Positions 409 to 17,880 of a stretch of 17,880 nt of DNA are shown here, piece by piece (the stretch's first letter is position 1; every line of letters begins with the position of its first letter). The notes below the pieces were generated by a model. The model was not told the DNA's origin, made no database searches, and saw only the letters and a list, made by a program, of their open reading frames with translations. Made by a program: the position numbers and the translations under genes. The DNA is from a bacterium. Lineage in GTDB: Bacteria; UBP15; UBA6099; DSWB01. The stretch lies in the NCBI GenBank assembly GCA_020061125.1, contig JAGUYV010000174.1, positions 1-17,880 of the forward strand. The letters run 5' to 3'.

Positions 409-460
409 TGCGCCTTGATGTGGAAAGAGATTTTGTTTGGAAGTAAAATACAAGTACGGA

Positions 461-486
461 TGATACTATTGCACACAGGAGGGGTC
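461..486 (+). promoter_or_regulatory. Strong ribosome binding site, and possible extended -10, before hicB
   Basis: AGGAGG at 477-482 lies 4 bases before the ATG at 487. It decides the hicB start over an upstream TTG at 415 in the same frame. A TGATACTAT at 461-469 resembles an extended -10 box, but no -35 match is seen at the right spacing and the resulting leader would be only about 10 bases. The ribosome site is well supported and the promoter is speculative. Confidence 0.45.
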
Positions 487-729
487 ATGCCGGAAATTTG
501 CCTCAAACTCCACATAGAAAGCCTGGACGAAGGCGGATATGTTGCAACAAGCCCCAACCTTCCTGGACTTGTCGCACAGGGTAGAACACTTTCTGAAACA
601 CTGGAAATTGCTCAAGATGTTGCGAGAAAATTGATTGAGTCATACGAAGAACACGGAGACCCCTTGCCGCCAGGCCTGCAAAAGCCCGGAAAGAAGCTAA
701 ACATTGACATAGCCGTCGGAATTGCATGA
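487..729 (+). CDS. hicB: HicB-family antitoxin
   Basis: This 80-residue protein matches the compact HicB (UPF0150) fold, a degraded RNase H-like domain that binds and neutralises the HicA mRNA-cutting toxin. Seen directly: the typical core GGYVATSPNLPGLVAQGRTL at residues 16-35, followed by the amphipathic helix with SETLEIAQDVARKLIESY and a short C-terminal strand with PLPPG. ATG 487 is chosen because of the AGGAGG box just upstream; an earlier TTG in frame lacks support. The stop overlaps the hicA start in an ATGA arrangement (726-729), so the two are translationally coupled, antitoxin first. The protein ends soon after the core and has no separate C-terminal HTH or ribbon-helix-helix domain, as in the short HicB subclass, so how the pair autoregulates is unclear. 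The gene is AT-richer than its neighbours, which suggests horizontal arrival. Confidence 0.85.
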   Translation: MPEICLKLHIESLDEGGYVATSPNLPGLVAQGRTLSETLEIAQDVARKLIESYEEHGDPLPPGLQKPGKKLNIDIAVGIA

Positions 730-953
730 TGGGCCAGCTTGCCGGATTCACATATAAAGACATCATTGGCAAATTGAAAAAACTTGGTTTTGAATTTGAT
801 AGAAATGCCAAGGGAAGTCATGAAATCTGGAGAAATCCCCAAACAAGGGCGAGAACAACCATTCCGAATCACCCTGGAGACATTCCAGAAGGAACAGTTC
901 GCAATATTATTCAACAGGGCATGATCAGCAAAAGAGCTTTTCTGGATATCTAA
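726..953 (+). CDS. hicA: HicA-family mRNA interferase toxin
   Basis: This 75-residue protein is a HicA toxin, a small dsRBD-like ribonuclease that cleaves mRNA independently of ribosomes and is held inactive by HicB. Seen directly: the opening helix YKDIIGKLKKLGFEF at residues 10-24, the hallmark KGSHEIWRNP at 29-38 whose histidine (H32) is the expected catalytic residue, the strand TTIPNHPGDIPEGTVRNI at 44-61, and a final helix with IIQQGMISKRAF. This is the full usual length of the family, with no damage, so an active toxin is expected. Two adjacent ATG codons (726 and 729) could start it; the first overlaps the hicB stop in ATGA. The gene after it is on the opposite strand and ends only 40 bp away, so hicBA forms a stand-alone two-gene unit. 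Confidence 0.88.
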   Translation: MMGQLAGFTYKDIIGKLKKLGFEFDRNAKGSHEIWRNPQTRARTTIPNHPGDIPEGTVRNIIQQGMISKRAFLDI

Positions 954-993: not shown

Positions 994-1401
994 TCAAAAA
1001 TCCTTCTGCAAATAAGTCCGCGCGCGCACCGTGGCGTCCCCGATGCGCAGGTCGAGATCAACCTGTTGCCTGATTTCCGGACATTGCTCGAATTTTTCGA
1101 GGCGGGCGATTTCGTGCTCGCCAAGGCCGAGCAGGGCCATGCCGGACAGAACCGCGCCCGATTCGCGGCGCATGAAGTGCATTTGCTTTCCGTCAATTTC
1201 CGCGTACCCGCGCGAGAATCCCGCTGCCAGGGCCGGAGCCATGGCCACGCGCCGGCCCAGCACATGCGCGGCGATGTCAGGATCCATGAGGGAACCGCAC
1301 ACGAACGCCACGGCGTCCGCGCGGCGCGGGTCCACTGGCGCGCCCTCGGGGTGCAACACCACCGCGAAAATGTCTCGTATCAGCGTGACCTGATATGGCA
1401 T
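994..1401 (-). CDS. Gamma-glutamylcyclotransferase-like (AIG2 fold) protein
   Basis: This 135-residue protein resembles the GGCT/AIG2-like cyclotransferase family, small enzymes that cyclise gamma-glutamyl amines or amino acids to release 5-oxoproline. Seen directly: VAFVCGSLMDPDI at residues 31-43, matching the family's nucleotide-loop-like FVYGTLM signature, and GMALLGLGEHEIARLEKFEQ at 87-106, where E105 sits at the position of the catalytic glutamate in the usual LDxxE segment. Two features are odd: the tyrosine of the signature is replaced by cysteine (C35), and about 30 residues precede the signature, whereas family members usually begin close to it. ATG 1401 has no strong ribosome site; AAGGA lies about 16 bases upstream. 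It starts 46 bp after the murJ stop on the same strand and is probably co-transcribed with it. The fold assignment is fairly safe but the substrate is unknown. Confidence 0.65.
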   Translation of the reverse strand: MPYQVTLIRDIFAVVLHPEGAPVDPRRADAVAFVCGSLMDPDIAAHVLGRRVAMAPALAAGFSRGYAEIDGKQMHFMRRESGAVLSGMALLGLGEHEIARLEKFEQCPEIRQQVDLDLRIGDATVRARTYLQKDF

Positions 1402-1447: not shown

Positions 1448-3097
1448 TCATTTTTTCAGCCTGAACCGCCGCAGGAACATGCCCGTGACATCGCCGGCCT
1501 CGGGCACTTTGAACACCCTGCACGCTGCCAGAAACACCGCGCCGCCCAGGACCATGATGCCGAGCACCTGCACGGAGGGGTCCATGTTCTTCATGAAAAA
1601 CGCGGCGGCCGCCACCGCGGCGCTCATGACCAGCGTGGCCAGAGTCACGCGCGCGAAACCGTCCCACACGCGCCCCATGTCGAAATCCGGCATGCGCTTG
1701 CGGAACAGGATCAGCAGGGCGACGAGGTTGAAAAGCGTGGCCAGGGAGATGGCCAGGGCGATGCCCTGATGCTCAAGATGCTGTACGGCAACTCCGGCAT
1801 AATAGAACGGAGACACATGCGACACGAACACCAGCGCCTTGATGGCGGGATTGGCCATGTCCACCACGGGCTGCACAAGGCCCACGCCCATGGGAATGAT
1901 GATCAGCAGCACGCTCGTAAGCGCCACCAGGAACGGGGTGCGCGTGTCCTGCATTGAGAAGAAACCGCGGGTCACCATCTGGATGGCGGTGTGGCCGGCC
2001 AGGCCGATGGAGTAATACAGAAGTACGCCGCGCGTGTCCAGGCAGTCGGCCATGGTGAATTCGCCGCCGCCGAACAGCAGGCGCACGATGGGCATTCCGA
2101 GCAGGATGAACCCGGCGGTGCACGGCAGCGAAAACACGAAGGTGGAGCGGATGCCGCGCGCCAGCGTGCCGTGGAACTCGCCCCAGCGCTCACCCGCGGC
2201 CTGCGCGCTCATGGTCGGAAACGCGGCCATGGCCAATGCGTTTCCGAACACCCCCAGCGGCAGCAGCAGCAGGCGCACGCCGTACTGTAGCGAAGTCACC
2301 GACCCGTGGCTGAACAGGGAGCCGAAGGTGATGGGCAGCACGAACAGATTGATCTGCGACAGACTCATGCCCAACATGGCGGGCAGAAACAGCGCCAGCG
2401 CGCGTTTCACATTTGGATCCCCTGGCCCCGAACGCACATGGTACCGCAGCCCCTTTCGGATCATCACCGGGAACTGAACCAGAACCATGGACCCCGCGCC
2501 CACAAGCACGCCATAAGACAGTCCCTTGATGCCCATGCGCCCGTGCAGGATGAACGCCGCGCCGATGATGCCGAGATTGTGCAGGCTCCACGCCAGAGCC
2601 GGGGTGGAGAAATGATCCTTGGACTGCAGCACCGCGTTGCACAGCGCGGCCGTGGCCGTGAAAATCACCATGGGGAAGATGATGCGCATGATGTCCACGC
2701 ACAGCGCCTTGGTCTGCGGCTCGTTGCGGAACCCCGGCACGATGATGTCCGTCAACTGCGGCGCGAACACCATGCCCAGCACGATGCCTGGAACCACCAC
2801 CAGCATGAGCACATTCCACACGCCGCTCGCCAGCCGCCACGCGTCCTCTTCCTGCTTCTTCTCCAGCAGGCCAGAGAACAGGGGAATGAACGCGGCGCTC
2901 AACGCGCCTCCCGACGCCAGCACATACAGCAGATCCGGCACCGTGAACGCGCCTATGAACGCATCCGTCTCCCACCCGCGGCCGAAATAATACGCGATCA
3001 CCTTGTAACGAAGATACCCAAGGATGCGGCTGATGATCATGCCGAACATCACAATCGCCGCGGCACGCTTTACTGTCTTGATGGCTTTGTCGCTCAC
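1448..3097 (-). CDS. murJ: MurJ/MviN lipid II flippase
   Basis: This is a polytopic inner-membrane protein of the MurJ (MviN) family, which flips the peptidoglycan precursor lipid II from the cytoplasmic to the outer leaflet. Seen directly: the family opening AIVMFGMIISRILGYLRY, the segment ETDAFIGAFTVPDLLYVLAS followed by GALSAAFIPLF, the mid-protein VFGNALAMAAFPTMS, and RGFFSMQDTRTPF, with about 14 hydrophobic segments along the chain. The start chosen is GTG at 3097, which has a GGGAG box 9 bases upstream and gives MSDKAIKTVKRAA (549 residues, normal for the family). An ATG at 3163 in the same frame would add 22 basic residues not typical of MurJ and has a weaker ribosome site. The AIG2-like gene follows 46 bp downstream. 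murJ is essential housekeeping and is unrelated in function to the glycosidase genes upstream. Confidence 0.92.
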   Translation of the reverse strand: MSDKAIKTVKRAAAIVMFGMIISRILGYLRYKVIAYYFGRGWETDAFIGAFTVPDLLYVLASGGALSAAFIPLFSGLLEKKQEEDAWRLASGVWNVLMLVVVPGIVLGMVFAPQLTDIIVPGFRNEPQTKALCVDIMRIIFPMVIFTATAALCNAVLQSKDHFSTPALAWSLHNLGIIGAAFILHGRMGIKGLSYGVLVGAGSMVLVQFPVMIRKGLRYHVRSGPGDPNVKRALALFLPAMLGMSLSQINLFVLPITFGSLFSHGSVTSLQYGVRLLLLPLGVFGNALAMAAFPTMSAQAAGERWGEFHGTLARGIRSTFVFSLPCTAGFILLGMPIVRLLFGGGEFTMADCLDTRGVLLYYSIGLAGHTAIQMVTRGFFSMQDTRTPFLVALTSVLLIIIPMGVGLVQPVVDMANPAIKALVFVSHVSPFYYAGVAVQHLEHQGIALAISLATLFNLVALLILFRKRMPDFDMGRVWDGFARVTLATLVMSAAVAAAAFFMKNMDPSVQVLGIMVLGGAVFLAACRVFKVPEAGDVTGMFLRRFRLKK

Positions 3098-3178
3098 TTT
3101 GCAACGCTCCCGCGCCCGCGCAGCATTCCGGAACAGGAACCAGCCCGGCGCAATGGCTGGCATTTCTCACATCATCAC

Positions 3179-3235
3179 ATTGTATATCTCTTTTGCATAA
3201 GTTCTATGCGTGAGCCATGATTCATCAATTGATGA
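3179..3235 (-). promoter_or_regulatory. Possible murJ promoter region with two dyads
   Basis: The 190-bp stretch between murJ and the GH27 stop is the only AT-rich gap on the - strand. Read on -, TACAAT (3184-3179) is a five-of-six match to a -10 box and would give transcription into the GTG start at 3097, but no good -35 is seen. Just upstream lie an inverted repeat GCATA-N5-TATGC (3195-3209) and a perfect 14-bp palindrome TCATCAATTGATGA (3222-3235), placed where an operator could sit. No experimental or family evidence supports this. Confidence 0.25.
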
Positions 3236-3243
3236 TTTGTCCA

Positions 3244-3276
3244 ATAAAGGCTTAACAAGCATCCGTAGCCTTACGG
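3244..3276 (-). terminator. Weak hairpins after the glycosidase operon, possible terminator
   Basis: Downstream of the GH27 stop on the - strand there are two short hairpins: CCGTA-AGGC-TACGG (3276-3263), and GCTT-GTT-AAGC (3260-3250) followed by CTTTATT. The stems are only 5 and 4 bp and the T-run is interrupted, so this is a poor intrinsic terminator. It is listed because some termination is expected between the operon and murJ. Confidence 0.2.
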
Positions 3277-3287
3277 CGGCCGCGCCG

Positions 3288-5279
3288 TCAATCATACTCG
3301 TTCGGCTGCGGGGCGCCGATTTTGAGGAGCACGGCGCCGTGCGCGGGCACGGTTATGGTGTGCGAGCCTTCGATGAAACCCGTATCTCGTCTCCGCCACA
3401 GATCGCGCACGGGCTGCGTGACGGCCGGATCCAGGCCGATGTCCGCCACCCGGTAAGTGATGTCCGCGTCCTGCACGAACCTGTTGAACAGGCCCACGGC
3501 CACTGTACCGTCGTAAAGCGGCCGCGCCCACACTTCGAGCAGCATGCCCGCATCCGCGACCCTGCGGCCCTGCTTTCCGAGCGGGTCCTGGTTCACGGCC
3601 AGGACTTCGGGGTTGGTGAGCAAGTCCTTCGTAAACTGGTCCATGTCCGTCATGTCGCAGCCGATGAGCAGCGGGGACGCAAGCATGCTCCACAGGGAGA
3701 TGTGCGTGATCTGCTCATTGGGGGTGAGGCGCGTGGGATGGATGCTTGGCCCCCAGCCCACTTTGCCGACCACGAGCATGTCCGGGTCGTTCCAGCGGCC
3801 GGGTCCGGCGTGGGACTCGATGCCGTTCTGGCTGAAGCCGATGCCGGCCATGCTCTCCCAGGTGTCCACGATGTCGCCGGTGGTGCGCCACAGGTTGCCG
3901 CCCACCTCGGCGCCCCATTCCCAGACATTGCCCATGCCGTACTGGCACAGGCTGTACACGATGTCGCGGCTGGCTTTGTCCAGGGCGTCGCGCATCACGA
4001 AATAGGGTTTCATGAGTTCCTCGCGGCTGTCGTCCTTTGCGATGATCCGGTACGAGCACCAGTCGTGCTTGAGGTAGTCAATGCCCCAATCGGCCCAGGT
4101 GGCGGCGTCTATGTGCTCGTGCTCCCATGAGCCAGGATATCGTGCGCAGGTTTCCGGGCCGGGCGAGGAGTAGATGCCGAGTTTGAGGCCCAGGGAATGG
4201 ACATGGTCCGCGAGCGCCTTCATGTCCGGAAATTTTTCATTGGTGCGGAGCACTCCCGAGGCGTCGCGCGCGCCCTCCCACGCGTCGTCTATGTTGATGT
4301 ATTGGAAACCCACGGAGGCCAGGCCTGAAGCGTGCATGGCCTCCGCGGCGGCGCGCACCTTGTCCTGGGTTACGGAGGTTCCCCACACATTCCACGAGTT
4401 CCAGCCCATGGGCGGAGTGAGCGCGAGCCTGTGCGTTCCGCCGGCGATTTTGAGTTTCCGTTGAGCAACTGCGCCCGAGGCGTCGGTGACTTTGAGCGCA
4501 ACCATGGTTTCGCCGCCGCCCTGCAGCGCGCCGGAGATGATGCCCGTGGCCGGGTCCAGGGAAAGGCCCGCGGGCAGATTGGCTGCCTCAAATTTCAGGG
4601 GCGCTTTTCCCGTTGCCGGGATGCGGAACAGGAACGGGCGGCCCGGTGTCGCGCCGGTCACGCGCGGGCCATGGATGCCGATGGCGGTGAAGTCCGTATG
4701 CGCGATTTCCATGGATGCGGTCTCCTCGAAAGCGGCGATGGTCACGGAAGCCTCCATGCCGGGTTTGACCTTGAGCAGCGCTCCGGCCCAGTCCGCCGCC
4801 GCATTTCCGGCTCCGATAGCGCGCACAGTGAGAAACATCTGTCGCGCGCCCGCGCAGTCCGCTTCGATAATACGCGGCGCTTGCCCCTTGCTCACCGGTT
4901 CGGACTCCGCGGCCTTTTTGCCGTCCAGCCACACCTCGAACACCACAGGGCCGGACGAACCCGAAAAGTCGTTCACGCCAACCATGGACGCGAACCGCTC
5001 GGCCGCGCCGCCGAGGTTCACCACCAGCACGCTTGACGGGAATCCGCCCAGGCCGTGCTGATAGATTACGCCCTTGAGCATGATGGGGCCGCCGGACGAC
5101 GACTTGTTCACGGGCATTCCCGGAGTGCGGCCCGGTCCCACCAGATCGTCGAGCCACACCGCGCCTTTGGGCGGATTGGGCGCACGGAATGCGGCCTCTC
5201 CCAGCGCCAGCGCGCTTGCCGCCATGCACGCCGCGGCAAGCAGCGCTCCGATAATCATGCCGATCAGTTTCTTCATCAT
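3288..5279 (-). CDS. GH27 alpha-galactosidase with NPCBM and Ig-like domains
   Basis: This 663-residue exported enzyme is predicted to remove terminal alpha-linked galactose (or possibly alpha-GalNAc), as on blood-group B or alpha-Gal epitopes. Seen directly: a signal peptide (1-26, ending SALA); an NPCBM-like galactose-binding module at about 30-175 (KGVIYQHGLGG, then RFASMVGVND); a putative Ig module at 200-280 with the classic LPAGLSLDPATGIISG; and a GH27 barrel from 285 (LTPPMGWNSWN). Catalytic residues are in place: IDDAW (D331, D332), nucleophile D406 in YLKHDWC, acid/base D469 in WRTTGDIVD, and WNDPDM at 496-501. A C-terminal beta-sandwich follows. The loop that reads the sugar 2-position is SLCQYG, which favours alpha-galactosidase over alpha-GalNAcase. 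The ATG at 5279 has GGGAG 6 bases upstream. It is the last gene of the operon, 24 bp after GH29. Beta-L-arabinopyranosidase is an alternative GH27 activity. Confidence 0.9.
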   Translation of the reverse strand: MMKKLIGMIIGALLAAACMAASALALGEAAFRAPNPPKGAVWLDDLVGPGRTPGMPVNKSSSGGPIMLKGVIYQHGLGGFPSSVLVVNLGGAAERFASMVGVNDFSGSSGPVVFEVWLDGKKAAESEPVSKGQAPRIIEADCAGARQMFLTVRAIGAGNAAADWAGALLKVKPGMEASVTIAAFEETASMEIAHTDFTAIGIHGPRVTGATPGRPFLFRIPATGKAPLKFEAANLPAGLSLDPATGIISGALQGGGETMVALKVTDASGAVAQRKLKIAGGTHRLALTPPMGWNSWNVWGTSVTQDKVRAAAEAMHASGLASVGFQYINIDDAWEGARDASGVLRTNEKFPDMKALADHVHSLGLKLGIYSSPGPETCARYPGSWEHEHIDAATWADWGIDYLKHDWCSYRIIAKDDSREELMKPYFVMRDALDKASRDIVYSLCQYGMGNVWEWGAEVGGNLWRTTGDIVDTWESMAGIGFSQNGIESHAGPGRWNDPDMLVVGKVGWGPSIHPTRLTPNEQITHISLWSMLASPLLIGCDMTDMDQFTKDLLTNPEVLAVNQDPLGKQGRRVADAGMLLEVWARPLYDGTVAVGLFNRFVQDADITYRVADIGLDPAVTQPVRDLWRRRDTGFIEGSHTITVPAHGAVLLKIGAPQPNEYD

Positions 5280-5303
5280 GGTTCTCCCGTCTGTTGTTTC
5301 ATG

Positions 5304-6767
5304 TTATTTTTCCGCTGATGGCGCCATGGTGAAAAGCGCGAACTCGGCCAGCGTGGGCGCCACGCGGTATTGCGAGAAACGGATGCGCACCCGGCTCGCT
5401 GTCACCGGCTCGAACTGCACGAACCTCTTGTAGCCCACGGTTGTGCCCGAAGCGATTTCCGTCCATCGGCCGTTGATTTCCGCGTCCAGGGCGAAAGCCT
5501 CGATGCGCTGCCCGGAGGCGATGTGCTCCTGGAACATGGCGATGTCGAACGCGGCAGGCGCGGGCAATGTGTATTCGAGCGAAATCTCGCCCGCGCCTTC
5601 CGGCCCCTGCCAGAAGGTGTCCTGGTCTCCGTCAATGGCCGCGGCTTCGCCCTGCGCTCCGGCAAGGAAATTCCGATCATATATGGCGTCAATGCGTTTT
5701 CGCAGGGATTTGAGCGCCTTGATGTCGTTTTTGTGAATGAGTCCGTCCGGCCCGGGCGGAATGTTCAGCAGGAGTTGCGCATTGCCCCCCACGGTGTTGA
5801 ACCAGATGTGGAACAATTGGCTGTTGGTTTTCACGAGGTAATCTTCGCCGGGATGGTAGAACCAGCCGGGGCGGATGGATGTGTCGGCCTGGGCCGGATA
5901 CCAGCGCAGGGTGTCGCCATTTTTCGCCGCGGCCATCAGATGCGCACGGCCGCCCGGAACCATATCTCCGGCCGGGGTGCTGACCGGCAACACACTCCAC
6001 TGCGTGTCCGGGTTTTCACCCGCCTCGTTGCCGATCCAGCGCACATCCGGACCGTAGATGGACATGGCCGCCTGGGGCTGAAGTTCGCGCACGGTGGCGA
6101 AAATCGTGTCCCAGTCGTACGCTACGCCCTGGCAGCGCGGATCCGGATCCATGGCGGAACCGCACGCGCCGTCCATCCAGACTTCATGGACCGGGCCGTA
6201 GCCTGTGAGCAACTCGCGCAACTGGTTGTCATAGTATGTGTCGTATTCGGACGAGCCGAACAGGGTGGAATTGCGGTCCCAGGGTGAGAGGTAGAGCCCG
6301 AACTTGAGGCCGGATTCGCGCGCGGCGTCCGCGGCCTCGCGCACCACATCGCCGCCGCCGTTTTTCCACGGGCTGTTCTTCACGGAATGCTCCGTGAAAG
6401 CGCTGGGCCAGAGGCAGAACCCGTCGTGATGCTTGGCCGTGAGGATCATTTGCGTCATGCCCGCATCCCTGATCACGGCGGCCCACTGGCGCGCGTCCAG
6501 CTTTCCCGGGTTGAACAGCGCCGGGTCCTCGGTTCCCCTGCCCCACTCCCTGTTGGTCATGGTGTTCATCCCGAAATGGATGAAGGCCGTGTATTCCTCG
6601 CGCTGCCAGGCGATCTGCCTCGGGTGCGGCGTCACGGATGCGGCTTTGCGCATGACCTGCTCTTCGGTGTCGGAGGGTTCGAGCTTCACAAAGTATTCCG
6701 CCCGGCACGGCGCGCCGCATAGCACAAGCACAGCCGCAATCAACATTGATTTCAGGATGTGGTTCAT
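5304..6767 (-). CDS. GH29 alpha-L-fucosidase
   Basis: This 487-residue exported alpha-L-fucosidase has a C-terminal discoidin-like (F5/8 type C, CBM32-type) module. Seen directly: a signal peptide (1-23); the GH29 barrel with FIHFGMNTM at 62-70, LTAKHHDGFCLWPS at 109-122 that binds fucose, and the nucleophile D199 in HEVWMDGACG; and a candidate acid/base E248 in RWIGNEAG. The YDW at 217-219 following the nucleophile loop resembles subgroup B enzymes, which prefer alpha-1,3/1,4-fucose on Lewis-type branched glycans; this subgroup call is inference. From about 370 the chain switches to the beta-sandwich (AAAIDGDQDTFW, later SRVRIRFSQY). ATG 6767 is chosen because AGGAG lies 6 bases upstream; a GTG immediately before it is too close to that box. 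The gene lies 16 bp after the GH95 stop and 24 bp before GH27, so it is part of the same transcript. Confidence 0.9.
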   Translation of the reverse strand: MNHILKSMLIAAVLVLCGAPCRAEYFVKLEPSDTEEQVMRKAASVTPHPRQIAWQREEYTAFIHFGMNTMTNREWGRGTEDPALFNPGKLDARQWAAVIRDAGMTQMILTAKHHDGFCLWPSAFTEHSVKNSPWKNGGGDVVREAADAARESGLKFGLYLSPWDRNSTLFGSSEYDTYYDNQLRELLTGYGPVHEVWMDGACGSAMDPDPRCQGVAYDWDTIFATVRELQPQAAMSIYGPDVRWIGNEAGENPDTQWSVLPVSTPAGDMVPGGRAHLMAAAKNGDTLRWYPAQADTSIRPGWFYHPGEDYLVKTNSQLFHIWFNTVGGNAQLLLNIPPGPDGLIHKNDIKALKSLRKRIDAIYDRNFLAGAQGEAAAIDGDQDTFWQGPEGAGEISLEYTLPAPAAFDIAMFQEHIASGQRIEAFALDAEINGRWTEIASGTTVGYKRFVQFEPVTASRVRIRFSQYRVAPTLAEFALFTMAPSAEK

Positions 6768-6783
6768 CACCGTCTCCTATGAT

Positions 6784-14101
<7,318 letters not shown>

Positions 14102-14113
14102 ATTTCCTCCAAG

Positions 14114-15643
14114 TTACCAGAAAATGATGTACAGCACGGCCGTGAGCGCCACGATGATCGCGCCCAGCACGGGAGCGATGCGGCTCGGCCGGTGATCGTA
14201 ACCCGGAATTTCGGGCATGGTCACCGGCTGCTTCAGGGGCGCGATCATGGTAATGGCGACATTCCACACGCACAGGCATGCGAATGTGATGAGCATGTGG
14301 TGCAGGAACGCCACCTTTGGCAGGCCGAAGAGCAGCGCGCCGTAGATGGGGATGCCCAGAAGCATGGAGCCGATGGCGCCGGCCGGGGGCGTGCGCTTCG
14401 AGAACATCCCGAACACGAACGCGGCCACGATGCCCGGAGAGATGAAGCCCCAGATTTTCTGGATGTACTGAAACACGCTGCCGAAGTTGCTGATGATGGG
14501 CGACCACAGGCAGCCGATGATCACGAACAGCGCGGTGGTCACACGGCCGATGGTCACAAGCTGCCTGGGCGTGGCTTTCCTGTTGATGTGTTCCTTGTAG
14601 ATGTCCACAGTGAAAATTGTGGACGCGGAATTGAGCATGGAGTCCAGGGAACTCATGACCGCGCCGAACAGGGCCGCGAACATGGCGCCGCGCAGTCCCG
14701 CGGGCAGAATCTTGCTCATGAGAATCGGGAACGCCTGATCCGGGTTTGCGATTTGGTCCGCGTACAGGTGATAGGCCATGATGCCGGGGAACACGATGAT
14801 GAAGGGAATGAGCAGCTTGAGAAACGCGGCGAACATGATGCCCTTCTGACCCTCGGCCAGGCTCCTGGCGCCCAGTGCGCGCTGGGTGATGAACTGGTTC
14901 AGCCCCCAGTAGAACAGGTTGGGAATCCACAGGCCGCCGAAGAACACGGCCACCCAGGGCATCTCGGGATCGTTCCAGGGCTTGACCGTGTGCAGCTTGT
15001 CCCCGGCGATCTCGAAGAACTCGGCCGGGCCGCCGATGGCCTGGAACCCGAGGACCATGACCAGCGCGCCGCCAAGAAGCAAAGCCGCGCCCTGGATCAG
15101 GTCCGACCACACCACGGCCTTGAGTCCGCCGTACACGGTGTAGCCTCCGGCCAGGATGCCGATGAGCCAGATGCCGTAAATGATGTTCAGTCCGTAAATG
15201 GCTTCCAGGGCCAGCGCTCCCGAGTACAGCACCGTGGCCAGCGCCACGATGATGTACGCCATCATGATGAGCGTGGCCATGAGCGTGCGCGCGTTGCGGT
15301 TGTACCGGTATTCCAGAAACTGCGGCATGGTGTAGATGCCGCTCTTGAGGAATTTCGGCAGAAAGAACAGCGCCACGATCACGAGCGTGACCGCGGCCAT
15401 CCACTCGTAGCTGGCGATGGCCAGACCGATGTCGTACCCGCGGCCTGCCATGCCCACGAAATGTTCCGTGGATATGTTGGACGCGATGAGCGAAAACCCG
15501 ATCAGCCACCAGGTGAGCTTGCGCCCGGCCAGAAAGTAATTCTCGTCGGACGATTCCGAGTCCCGCGACGCAAACAGGGACACGCCGATGACAAAGGCGA
15601 TGAAAAGCACGAACACAACATAGTCGAGCAATTCGAAGTGCAT
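14114..15643 (-). CDS. Sodium/sugar symporter of the SSS (SGLT) family
   Basis: This 509-residue inner-membrane Na+/solute symporter is very close in pattern to the Vibrio galactose transporter vSGLT. Seen directly: NISTEHFVGMAGRGYDIGLA at 56-75, IASYEWMAA at 76-84, GIYTMPQFLEYRYN at 102-115, VYGGLKAVVWSDLIQ at 170-184, YWGLNQFITQR at 245-255, FAAFLKLLIPF at 271-281, SSLDSMLNSASTIFT at 331-345 and FQYIQ at 391-395. Sugar-contact positions known from vSGLT map to N56, H61, E80, N249, K276 and Q392 or Q395; the Na2 site maps to A54, I57, A328, S331 and S332. About 14 membrane helices are visible. ATG 15643 is chosen because GGGAGG lies 7 bases upstream; an earlier start at 15664 lacks this. It is the only transporter in the operon, so it is the likely importer of a hexose released by the hydrolases, with galactose or glucose favoured over fucose or GlcNAc. 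Confidence 0.9.
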   Translation of the reverse strand: MHFELLDYVVFVLFIAFVIGVSLFASRDSESSDENYFLAGRKLTWWLIGFSLIASNISTEHFVGMAGRGYDIGLAIASYEWMAAVTLVIVALFFLPKFLKSGIYTMPQFLEYRYNRNARTLMATLIMMAYIIVALATVLYSGALALEAIYGLNIIYGIWLIGILAGGYTVYGGLKAVVWSDLIQGAALLLGGALVMVLGFQAIGGPAEFFEIAGDKLHTVKPWNDPEMPWVAVFFGGLWIPNLFYWGLNQFITQRALGARSLAEGQKGIMFAAFLKLLIPFIIVFPGIMAYHLYADQIANPDQAFPILMSKILPAGLRGAMFAALFGAVMSSLDSMLNSASTIFTVDIYKEHINRKATPRQLVTIGRVTTALFVIIGCLWSPIISNFGSVFQYIQKIWGFISPGIVAAFVFGMFSKRTPPAGAIGSMLLGIPIYGALLFGLPKVAFLHHMLITFACLCVWNVAITMIAPLKQPVTMPEIPGYDHRPSRIAPVLGAIIVALTAVLYIIFW

Positions 15644-15718
15644 GGAGAAACCTCCCTGGAGCAAAGGGATGCGCGCCGGGCCATGCGGCGGGCGCTTATG
15701 TGGATTTCATGTATTGTA
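15644..15718 (-). other. Spacer between GH89 and the symporter with a GC-rich hairpin
   Basis: This 75-bp spacer is the longest gap inside the operon. Read on -, it holds a hairpin CGCCG-CATGGCC-CGGCG (15690-15674), extended by two more pairs across a mismatch, and then the symporter ribosome site GGGAGG. There is no T-run, so it is not a standard terminator. It could stabilise mRNA or damp read-through, or have no role. Confidence 0.3.
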
Positions 15719-17880
15719 TCACCGCGCGCACTCGCGGGTCATGGCGGCCCGGAATCTTTTGTGCACGGCCAGAGCCTCGTCCGCGGGATCGCCCAGGGGC
15801 GCCGCCGGATACGGCTCATGCCCGCGGGTCCAGCGCTCCTCCATGGCGTACCAGTCAATTCCCGTGGGGTCGAAAAACTTGCCCGGCTCGCCCTCGTTGA
15901 TCTGCTGCACCATGGCGTCCCATTCCTGTTCCACGGTCTCGCCGCCGCGCCGGGTGTATTGGTCGAAGTTGTCAATCACGGTGTTGAGGAACAGTTTCCA
16001 GCGCTCGTAGTAGAATCCGCGCAGCAGGCCGGCCCACTCGCGGTTGGCGTATTCGTGCAGCCGGTCCGCGGTCTCACGCGGCCCCCACACTGTGATTTGC
16101 GTGCGCGCGTTCCACTCGAACAAATCCATCTCCGCGGGGGTCGCGCCAAGAGCGCGCGCGGCATTGATCCAGGCGCCGAGCAGAAAGTGCGGGCTTGCCG
16201 CGGTGAGCCGGTCCTGGGCCTGAAGCAGTTCCAGAAACTCGTCCGCGGCTTGCTCGAAAGCGGGTTTGTCGGCTTTTGCATAGGCCGCGTTCAGCCGCGC
16301 AAGTGTGAGCAGCCCGAGGTTGGCCAGAGCCTGGCGCGACACATTCACCAGATCGTGCTCGAAGGTCTTCACGCCGCGGTACTTGTCCGCATCGGCCACG
16401 AACAGATCCCAGGCTTTGGCGAACTCGCACTGGTCGTACTCGCGCCGGAACTTGTTCATGTCCTGCGAGATGTTGATCCCGGGGCGCGCGCAGAACGGGG
16501 ATTCGGGTTCAGCGCGTTTGCCATCCTTTGGCCCGTAGGCCGTGTCTTTGAGCGTGCGCCAGGCTTTGTCCACGCCCGGCGTGAGTTTGCCGTAGCGGCG
16601 CTTGGCGAAGCCCGTGATCCATGTGTCCAGACTGGGCGGTTCGGTGCGCCAGCCCATTTCAAAGAGCAGGTCCCAGAGCGGATCGTCCTGCATGCTGGCT
16701 TCGAGCATGGCGCCGATGCCGGCCATGTTGCCGCGCTTGGGATCCTTGAGCGCGGCCGGGGGATACTGTGCCACTTTCCACAGCGCGCCGTAGATGCCCG
16801 TGTTGCCGCCGAAGTTCGAGATGACATTCCACACCCAGGGGAACCCGTAGAACCCTTCGCGCCGCTTCCACTGGGGGTTGGATTCCCCGAACAGGTCCAG
16901 GATCAGCGTGCGGTTTTTGTCCAGGCCGTCGAGGAGTTCTTTCTTGGGGTTGGACTGCCAGGCCTGAAGCACCCACACGGCGTCCGGCTCGAACGCGCGC
17001 ATGGCGCGCTGGATGTCGCGGCCCGCGCGCGTGAGGTTGATGTCCGCGCCGCCGCCCTCGTGGAACGGGTCTCCACCGAAGAAACGCGCATCGCCATAAA
17101 GCGCGCGCTGTTCCTGATACCAGATGGCCGCGGCCTGCCCGAACAGGGGATCCGACGGATCTATCATGGCCGGGCGGTCCATGTTCACCCACTTGCCCGT
17201 CTCCAGAATGCGCGCCCTGGGGTATTTTTTGATCATGGCCCTGGGGACCATGGAGAAGAACCCCTGCAGAACCGGCTCGATCTGCAGCTCGCGCATGCGC
17301 GCCAGGATTTTCTTCTGCAGCGCGGCCCGGTCCTCGATCCATTCCTGGCTCACCGGCCCGCCCCAGCCCTCGAGATTGCTCATGAGCCACCAGGCCTGGA
17401 ACCCCGGCCCGGGAATGAAGCGCGCAATCTCGTCTTCGGACAGGCCCAGGCGGCGCAGGGTGTTGCGCCACACCGCTTCCTGCCCCACCACGGACAGGGC
17501 CAGGTTCACACCGTTCAGCGCCAGAAAATCAAGCTCCCGCTCCCACTGCTCCCAGGTCCAGAACGACATGGTGTAATTGAATGTGCAATAGTTGTACATG
17601 TAGCGGTACTTGTAGGGCGACGCCATGCGCACCTTTTTGGGAACTGCCGGCAGGGGCGACGGCAGGGCGAGCTGGTCGCCGGTCCAGGACACATGAGCGT
17701 TGGCGTAGTATTTGAGATACCAGTGGAACCCGAACAGCAGGGCCGGCGCGCTGCTCCCGCGAACGATGATCTGCCCGTTGCGGGATTCGATTTCGAACAC
17801 ATCATTGCCTTTTTCCCTGGCGATTGCCTGGAGGCGGAATTTGGCGGCGTGCTGCGGCGCTATGCGCTTGACCACGCCCG
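15719..17880 (-). CDS. GH89 alpha-N-acetylglucosaminidase (5' end outside window)
   Basis: This is the C-terminal ~720 residues of a NAGLU-family enzyme, which removes terminal alpha-linked GlcNAc (in bacteria, from alpha-1,4-GlcNAc-capped gastric-type mucin O-glycans; in humans, from heparan sulfate). Seen directly: the end of the N-terminal domain (LLFGFHWYLKYYANAHVSW at visible residues 46-64); then the barrel with RYMYNYCTFNYTMSFWTWEQ at 91-110, FLALNGVNLALSVVGQEAVW at 117-136 and NLEGWGGP at 167-174. Acid/base E273 is in GGDPFHEGG, nucleophile E331 is in DLFGESNPQW, and WNVISNFGGNTGIYG follows at 349-363. The all-alpha C-terminal domain then runs to ECAR. The frame is open to the window edge, and the GTG at 17875 falls within the expected N-terminal domain, so the true start and any signal peptide lie beyond the window. 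It is the furthest-upstream operon gene visible. Confidence 0.93.
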   Translation of the reverse strand, partial: GVVKRIAPQHAAKFRLQAIAREKGNDVFEIESRNGQIIVRGSSAPALLFGFHWYLKYYANAHVSWTGDQLALPSPLPAVPKKVRMASPYKYRYMYNYCTFNYTMSFWTWEQWERELDFLALNGVNLALSVVGQEAVWRNTLRRLGLSEDEIARFIPGPGFQAWWLMSNLEGWGGPVSQEWIEDRAALQKKILARMRELQIEPVLQGFFSMVPRAMIKKYPRARILETGKWVNMDRPAMIDPSDPLFGQAAAIWYQEQRALYGDARFFGGDPFHEGGGADINLTRAGRDIQRAMRAFEPDAVWVLQAWQSNPKKELLDGLDKNRTLILDLFGESNPQWKRREGFYGFPWVWNVISNFGGNTGIYGALWKVAQYPPAALKDPKRGNMAGIGAMLEASMQDDPLWDLLFEMGWRTEPPSLDTWITGFAKRRYGKLTPGVDKAWRTLKDTAYGPKDGKRAEPESPFCARPGINISQDMNKFRREYDQCEFAKAWDLFVADADKYRGVKTFEHDLVNVSRQALANLGLLTLARLNAAYAKADKPAFEQAADEFLELLQAQDRLTAASPHFLLGAWINAARALGATPAEMDLFEWNARTQITVWGPRETADRLHEYANREWAGLLRGFYYERWKLFLNTVIDNFDQYTRRGGETVEQEWDAMVQQINEGEPGKFFDPTGIDWYAMEERWTRGHEPYPAAPLGDPADEALAVHKRFRAAMTRECAR

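What the first reader, a model, noticed from the sequence alone, without database searches (positions are those of the whole stretch)
3288..17880. Complete exo-acting toolkit for animal O-glycans in one operon
Six hydrolases with intact catalytic residues cover alpha-GlcNAc (GH89), beta-HexNAc (GH20), beta-Gal (GH2), alpha-1,2-Fuc (GH95), other alpha-Fuc (GH29) and alpha-Gal (GH27). Families and residues are read from the sequence. That these linkages co-occur on mucin O-glycans, blood-group and Lewis structures is established. The claim that the target is an alpha-GlcNAc- and fucose-capped host glycan, rather than a plant or algal polymer, is inference. GH89 is the most telling member because alpha-GlcNAc caps are rare outside gastric-type mucin and heparan sulfate.
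Basis: partly seen in the sequence, partly recalled or inferred. Interest (0 to 1): 0.6.

Follow-up and report, generated by a model that had tools for sequence, protein, structure and literature searches.

The report
Exo-glycosidase operon for animal-type glycans
A row of six sugar-trimming enzymes and a sodium-driven sugar importer, in the draft genome of an uncultured bacterium from a tiny, little-known lineage, looks built to strip the outer sugars of mucin- or glycoprotein-type glycans; the kind of gene cluster is well known, but the exact target and the organism's habitat remain unproven.

Summary
On the minus strand lie GH89 (5' end cut by the contig end), a sodium/sugar symporter, GH20, GH2 (LacZ type), GH95, GH29 and NPCBM-GH27, with gaps of 75, 12, -4, -4, 13 and 24 bases: one transcription unit by layout. 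Catalytic residues align with those of solved relatives. The finding leaves out the symporter, which keeps most vSGLT sugar-site residues, so released galactose or glucose is probably imported. GH29 is of the subfamily B type (Lewis-type alpha-1,3/4-fucosidases).

'Complete' is too strong: the cluster has no sialidase, sulfatase or enzyme for core GalNAc. A GH33 sialidase and nine sulfatases lie elsewhere in the genome; no M60 mucin peptidase was found. GH95 is ambiguous: its active site resembles xyloglucan- and L-galactose-active members more than AfcA or FucOB.

The genome belongs to a lineage with only seven genomes held, probably candidate phylum UBP15 (digester sludge, wastewater, black smoker): inference. 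A relative, RA.bin91, carries GH89, GH20, GH2, GH95 and GH29-B, mostly on separate contigs. A host-type glycoprotein target is the best reading; mucin-like microbial polymers are a live rival. New member of a known kind.

The parts
15719..17878 (-). GH89 alpha-N-acetylglucosaminidase, 5' end cut by the contig end (719 aa present)
   Evidence: Pfam NAGLU N, barrel and C domains; 489 bits to CpGH89 2vc9, E274 and E393 on the catalytic Glu columns
14114..15643 (-). SGLT-type sodium/sugar symporter (open frame from TTG 15664; likely start ATG 15643)
   Evidence: Pfam SSF; NCBIfam NF007790 over cut-off; 403 bits to vSGLT 2xq2 with E88, N260, Y263, K294 and Q428 equivalents kept and Q69 replaced by His
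12386..14101 (-). GH20 exo-beta-N-acetylhexosaminidase, signal peptide
   Evidence: Pfam GH20 409 bits; 439 bits to 6q63; D365-E366 pair
9222..12389 (-). GH2 LacZ-type beta-galactosidase, signal peptide (start overlaps the GH20 stop by 4 bases)
   Evidence: Pfam GH2 domains; NCBIfam NF052611 1112 bits, cut-off 999; 917 bits to 6sd0
6784..9225 (-). GH95 alpha-L-fucosidase (alpha-L-galactosidase not excluded), signal peptide; alternative ATG start at 9204
   Evidence: Pfam GH95_cat 587 bits; N402/N404/E537/D713 kept, Thr400 at the position of AfcA His419
5304..6770 (-). GH29 alpha-L-fucosidase, subfamily B type (1,3/1,4), with F5/8C module and signal peptide
   Evidence: Pfam; about 425 bits to 4zrx and to 3mo4 (alpha-1,3/4-fucosidase), against 86 bits or less for the group of thermotogal and Bacteroides GH29-A structures
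3288..5279 (-). GH27 alpha-galactosidase type with N-terminal NPCBM and putative Ig domain, signal peptide
   Evidence: Pfam NPCBM, He_PIG, Melibiase_2, Melibiase_C; 326 bits to 4nzj; D406/D469 kept

Best explanation
It is a catabolic operon of secreted or periplasmic exo-glycosidases coupled to a sodium/hexose symporter. The enzymes trim animal-type glycoprotein glycans (mucin O-glycans, Lewis and blood-group structures, complex N-glycans) from the non-reducing end: GH27 takes alpha-Gal, GH95 alpha-1,2-Fuc, GH29-B branched alpha-1,3/4-Fuc, GH89 alpha-GlcNAc, and GH2 with GH20 unzip the Gal-GlcNAc backbone in turn. The SGLT-type symporter then takes up released galactose or glucose. A GH33 sialidase and sulfatases encoded elsewhere would uncap the substrate first. 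The families and layout are shown; the substrate, the coupling and the uptake are inferred.
For: Six exo-acting families in one tight same-strand unit with catalytic residues kept. GH29 matches the alpha-1,3/4 (Lewis-type) subfamily at about 425 bits against at most 86 for GH29-A. GH89 is closest to the Clostridium perfringens enzyme. Signal-like N-termini on GH20, GH2, GH95, GH29 and GH27. A GH33 sialidase and nine sulfatases over the cut-off in the same genome. GH89, GH20 and GH95 each occur once in the genome as held, all in this cluster. The same GH set defines mucin-degrading profiles of Akkermansia, Victivallales and Bacteroides (PMC9120202). A relative has GH89, GH20, GH2, GH95 and GH29-B homologues at 49-54% identity.
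Against: No activity data. No enzyme for core GalNAc in the cluster and no M60 peptidase in seven genomes. Only a truncated, sub-threshold fucose-isomerase match in its own genome, which is 79% complete. GH95 residues do not favour mucin over plant substrates (PMC8245568). Relatives other than RA.bin91 lack GH89 and a confident GH95. In RA.bin91 most of the genes are not clustered. The lineage's probable habitat is not a gut.
Confidence: 0.55

Rival explanations
1. The target is mucin-like glycoconjugate made by microbes, such as sialylated and sulfated extracellular polymers of sludge granules or cell-surface glycoproteins of neighbours; the operon serves a digester scavenger or necromass feeder with no link to animals.
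For: Probable habitat of the lineage is digester sludge and wastewater (PMC11382960; phylum inferred from lineage size, genome sizes and GC). Granular sludge polymers are sialylated and sulfated and have been compared with mucin (PMC10483923). The genome has a GH33-type sialidase and nine sulfatases. Digester Planctomycetota carry similar exo-glycosidase sets (PMC11929135).
Against: Sewage also carries human mucin, and digester Planctomycetota were enriched on porcine mucin (PMC11929135). Lewis-type branching, which GH29-B enzymes prefer, is not reported for sludge polymers in the passages read.
Confidence: 0.22
2. Mixed or broad target: the operon handles terminal sugars of many glycoconjugates, including plant complex N-glycans with Lewis a caps and fucosylated xyloglucan oligosaccharides, with no single polymer.
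For: GH95 is nearest to BH0842 (activity unknown), BACOVA_03438 and XacAfc95 in the active-site stretch. GH95 acts on both O-glycans and xyloglucan, and plant antennary N-glycans carry alpha-1,4-Fuc (PMC10154630). LacZ and GH27 act on many plant galactosides (own knowledge).
Against: GH89 and GH20 have no obvious plant cell-wall role. No GH31, GH74 or other xyloglucan enzymes in the cluster.
Confidence: 0.13
3. The families are read correctly but the genes are a loose metabolic neighbourhood, not a unit with one substrate.
For: In RA.bin91 the homologues sit on four contigs, with unrelated neighbours for GH89 and GH20.
Against: Four-base overlaps at two junctions and short gaps at the rest in this genome.
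Confidence: 0.07
4. Heparan sulfate degradation: GH89 acts as in human lysosomes, with the genome's sulfatases, and the other enzymes are incidental.
For: 4xwh (human NAGLU, own knowledge) is a GH89 relative at 425 bits; sulfatases are present in the genome.
Against: The rest of the operon (two fucosidases, alpha- and beta-galactosidase, hexosaminidase) has no heparan role; no polysaccharide lyase or GH88 in the cluster.
Confidence: 0.03

Closest known systems
Mucin-degrading glycosidase repertoires of Akkermansia, Victivallales and Bacteroides (PMC9120202)
   Same: GH89, GH20, GH2, GH95, GH29 and, elsewhere in the genome, GH33; sulfatases too
   Different: Six hydrolases in one tight operon with a symporter, in an uncultured lineage of probable digester or wastewater habitat; no M60 peptidase found; no endo-enzyme in the cluster
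Bacteroidota polysaccharide utilisation loci for host glycans
   Same: Clustered exo-glycosidases with signal peptides and a transporter
   Different: No SusC/SusD pair in the window; import is by an SGLT-type monosaccharide symporter
Exo-glycosidase-rich Planctomycetota of anaerobic digesters (PMC11929135)
   Same: Environmental bacteria with GH33, GH29 and GH95 sets, some enriched on porcine mucin; two strains grown on mucin lack mucin-specific metalloproteases
   Different: Different lineage; GH89 does not occur in that paper's text; the cluster structure was not compared
Xyloglucan utilisation loci (GH95 with GH31, GH35, GH74; PMC8245568)
   Same: GH95 fucosidase with Thr at the polymorphic position, a beta-galactosidase, an inner-membrane sugar transporter
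   Different: No GH31, GH35 or GH74; GH89, GH20 and GH29-B instead

Membership tests
GH89 alpha-N-acetylglucosaminidase | NAGLU domains and two catalytic Glu | tested here: met
   three domains, E274 and E393 on the CpGH89 catalytic columns; N-terminus missing at the contig end
GH29 subfamily B (alpha-1,3/4-fucosidase) | Closer to BiAfcB-like enzymes than to GH29-A, nucleophile Asp and acid/base Glu kept | tested here: met
   about 425 bits to 4zrx and 3mo4, GH29-A 86 bits or less; D200 and E249 aligned
GH29 subfamily B (alpha-1,3/4-fucosidase) | Hydrolysis of Lewis-type branched fucose | not testable with these tools
   needs an assay
GH95 alpha-1,2-fucosidase acting on H antigen | Catalytic Asn pair and Glu, specificity for Fuc-alpha-1,2-Gal | tested here: inconclusive
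   Catalytic set kept; Thr400 where AfcA and FucOB have His; XacAfc95 and Blon_2335 are fucosidases with Thr, so the residue does not decide (PMC8245568)
GH27 alpha-galactosidase | Melibiase fold, catalytic Asp pair, galactose-binding Asp-Asp | tested here: met
   D406, D469, NIDDAW motif; a Cys-Gln-Tyr-Gly-Met stretch where the solved plant and Bacteroides enzymes have Cys-Glu-Trp, so the sugar preference at C2 is not settled
SGLT-type galactose/glucose symporter | Sugar-site residues of vSGLT (Q69, E88, N260, Y263, K294, Q428) | tested here: met
   all kept except Q69 to His; that human SGLT1 also has His at this place is own knowledge
Complete mucin O-glycan toolkit in one operon | Sialidase, sulfatase, core alpha-GalNAc-ase and endo- or peptidase activity in the cluster | tested here: not met
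   none in the window; GH33 and sulfatases are elsewhere; no M60 peptidase in seven genomes
SusC/SusD polysaccharide utilisation locus | SusC/SusD pair next to the hydrolases | tested here: not met
   no such gene in the window; the GH89 side is cut by the contig end
Candidate phylum UBP15 (host lineage) | Placement in a marker-gene tree | not tested
   Only circumstantial: 7 genomes of one order, 2.6-4.5 Mb, loci GC about 54-61%, against 6 genomes, 2.56-4.55 Mb, GC 51-60% in PMC11382960

The most novel reading that the evidence does not exclude
A free-living digester lineage has assembled a compact, symporter-coupled exo-glycosidase operon for mucin-like glycoproteins made by other microbes, showing that 'host-glycan' enzyme sets, GH89 included, also serve to recycle microbial extracellular polymers capped with alpha-GlcNAc and fucose.
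Probability: 0.15. Interest if true: 0.5.

Novelty: new member of a known kind. Interest (0 to 1): 0.27.

Why it matters
It would extend clustered host-type glycan trimming to a barely sampled candidate phylum and give a ready enzyme set (alpha-GlcNAc-ase, Lewis-type fucosidase, NPCBM alpha-galactosidase) for glycan analysis. It also makes a live question testable: whether such sets in sludge bacteria feed on sewage mucin or on mucin-like polymers made by the sludge itself.

Tried and rejected
Names and accessions of RA.bin91 and of the Bacteroidales run gave no paper on either. FEN-1099/Lernaellota was considered for the host phylum and set aside because relatives' loci have GC near 54-61%, mostly below its reported 61.5-64.3%. 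A literature search for 'UBP15' returned deubiquitinase and plant papers. The Thr/His difference in GH95 was first taken as evidence against fucosidase activity and dropped after PMC8245568, in which T395H in XacAfc95 changed nothing and another Thr-bearing GH95 is a fucosidase. The one scan of genome contigs with GH89 found only RA.bin91 and a Bacteroidales contig where GH89 stands next to a GH53 gene with no such operon, so the same gene order was not found elsewhere; that scan is narrow (two peptide patterns). Promoter and terminator scans gave about chance numbers. A structure prediction was not run because family assignment by profile was already beyond doubt and a fold would not settle the substrate.

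Full report
OBSERVATION. The window is a whole contig (C204) of a draft genome of 4.12 Mb in 513 contigs, 78.8% complete. From 17878 down to 3288 the minus strand encodes, in order, GH89, a sodium/solute symporter, GH20, GH2, GH95, GH29 and NPCBM-GH27. With the symporter starting at ATG 15643 the junctions are 75, 12, -4, -4, 13 and 24 bases; 124 bases follow to a MurJ gene on the same strand. Two junctions overlap by four bases, a usual sign of translational coupling. No promoter-like or terminator-like pattern stands out from chance. GH89 is cut at the contig end, so the start of the operon is unknown.

ENZYMES. Catalytic residues were checked by alignment to solved relatives. GH89: 489 bits to the C. 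perfringens enzyme 2vc9 and 425 to 4xwh, which I know as human NAGLU; E274 and E393 fall on the two catalytic Glu columns (the identity of those columns is own knowledge). GH20: 439 bits to 6q63, Asp-Glu pair at 365-366; my recollection is that 6q63 is the Bacteroides thetaiotaomicron N-glycan enzyme BT0459. GH2: LacZ type, 917 bits to 6sd0 and over the NCBIfam cut-off for Bga2A. GH29: about 425 bits to 4zrx and to the alpha-1,3/4-fucosidase 3mo4, against 86 bits at most for GH29-A structures, so it is of the subfamily B type. The genome has a second, A-type GH29 on C62. GH27: 326 bits to 4nzj, D406 and D469 kept, the Asp-Asp of NIDDAW kept; a Cys-Gln-Tyr-Gly-Met stretch replaces the Cys-Glu-Trp of the solved enzymes, so a preference for Gal is likely but not certain. 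It carries an NPCBM domain (CBM51), a module whose studied members bind galactose and blood-group structures (own knowledge). GH20, GH2, GH95, GH29 and GH27 begin with hydrophobic signal-like segments.

GH95. The catalytic Asn pair, Glu and Asp are kept (N402, N404, E537, D713). In the active-site stretch the nearest solved relatives are BH0842 (activity unknown), the L-galactosidase BACOVA_03438 and the xyloglucan fucosidase XacAfc95; the mucin-type FucOB and AfcA are further off. The position that is His in AfcA and FucOB is Thr here, as in BACOVA_03438 (PMC4491172). PMC8245568 shows that this residue does not decide: XacAfc95 has Thr and is fucose-specific, T395H changes nothing, and the GH95 fucosidase Blon_2335 also has Thr. 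GH95 is therefore an alpha-L-fucosidase by family, with its aglycone undecided.

SYMPORTER. 403 bits to vSGLT; of its sugar-site residues E88, N260, Y263, K294 and Q428 are kept and Q69 is His (the list of site residues is own knowledge). The most economical reading is sodium-driven uptake of galactose or glucose set free by GH27 and GH2. Uptake of fucose and GlcNAc is not explained by the window. No SusC/SusD pair is present.

THE REST OF THE GENOME. Four BNR_2 proteins include one with clear GH33 sialidase matches (C235; 167 bits to 1eur, YRIP motif and Asp boxes). There are ten sulfatase matches, nine over the cut-off, and no Peptidase_M60 in any of the seven genomes. The fucose-isomerase match is truncated at a contig edge and below the cut-off. 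GH89, GH20 and GH95 were each found once, all in this cluster. So the cluster is not complete in itself, but the genome adds a sialidase and sulfatases.

RELATIVES. Only six other genomes of the same order are held, and no others of its class or phylum turned up. G005 matches record JAKLIR01, 'bacterium isolate RA.bin91'. It has GH89 (53% identity), GH20 (51%), GH2 (49%), GH95 (54%) and a GH29-B (51%), on four contigs; GH2 and GH95 share one of them. It has no close GH27 and no close homologue of the symporter (best relatives about 25% identity). The other five have no GH89 and no confident GH95; GH20 is in four of those five. The set is thus largely shared with one relative, while the operon arrangement is so far seen only in this genome.

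LINEAGE AND HABITAT. The lineage's size (seven genomes), genome sizes (2.6-4.5 Mb) and locus GC (about 54-61%) fit the candidate phylum UBP15 in PMC11382960: six genomes, 2.56-4.55 Mb, GC 51-60%, from black smoker, digester sludge and wastewater. The accession of RA.bin91 (JAKLIR) lies near JAKLEM01, a digester-sludge genome in the same table. This is inference; no marker tree was possible. In such a habitat sewage mucin and mucin-like microbial polymers are both on offer. Granular sludge polymers are sialylated and sulfated (PMC10483923), and digester Planctomycetota with similar exo-glycosidase sets were enriched on porcine mucin and likewise lack mucin-specific metalloproteases (PMC11929135).

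VERDICT. The reading 'host-type glycoprotein glycans' is the best of several, at about 0.55. 'Complete' and 'O-glycans' are stronger than the evidence: N-glycans, glycolipid-type structures and microbial mucin-like polymers fit nearly as well. The GH families and their joint use are known from gut bacteria (PMC9120202), so this is a new member of a known kind in an under-sampled lineage.

Noticed in passing
window 415-953 (+): HicB-like antitoxin frame (415-729; weak, sub-cut-off Pfam match) followed by a frame reading like a HicA toxin (KKLGFEFDRNAKGSHEIW, about 707 to 950): a probable HicBA toxin-antitoxin pair next to an agmatinase fragment.
   Followed up: partly
window 994-1401 (-): Small open frame (135 aa) that reads like a gamma-glutamylcyclotransferase-type protein (FVCGSLMDPD); no NCBIfam match.
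   Followed up: no
window 1448-3163 (-): MurJ lipid II flippase directly downstream of the glycosidase operon, 124 bases after GH27; it may be co-transcribed by read-through.
   Followed up: no
L045:3689-4744 (G000:C460): BNR_2 protein with a very strong match (E 3e-69) but no sialidase match in NCBIfam; homologues of similar strength in G001 and G005. Function unclear.
   Followed up: partly
L020 (G005:C597) 2147-9619: In RA.bin91, GH95 sits beside a SASA-type carbohydrate esterase and opposite a GH2 gene: a different small glycan locus in the relative.
   Followed up: partly
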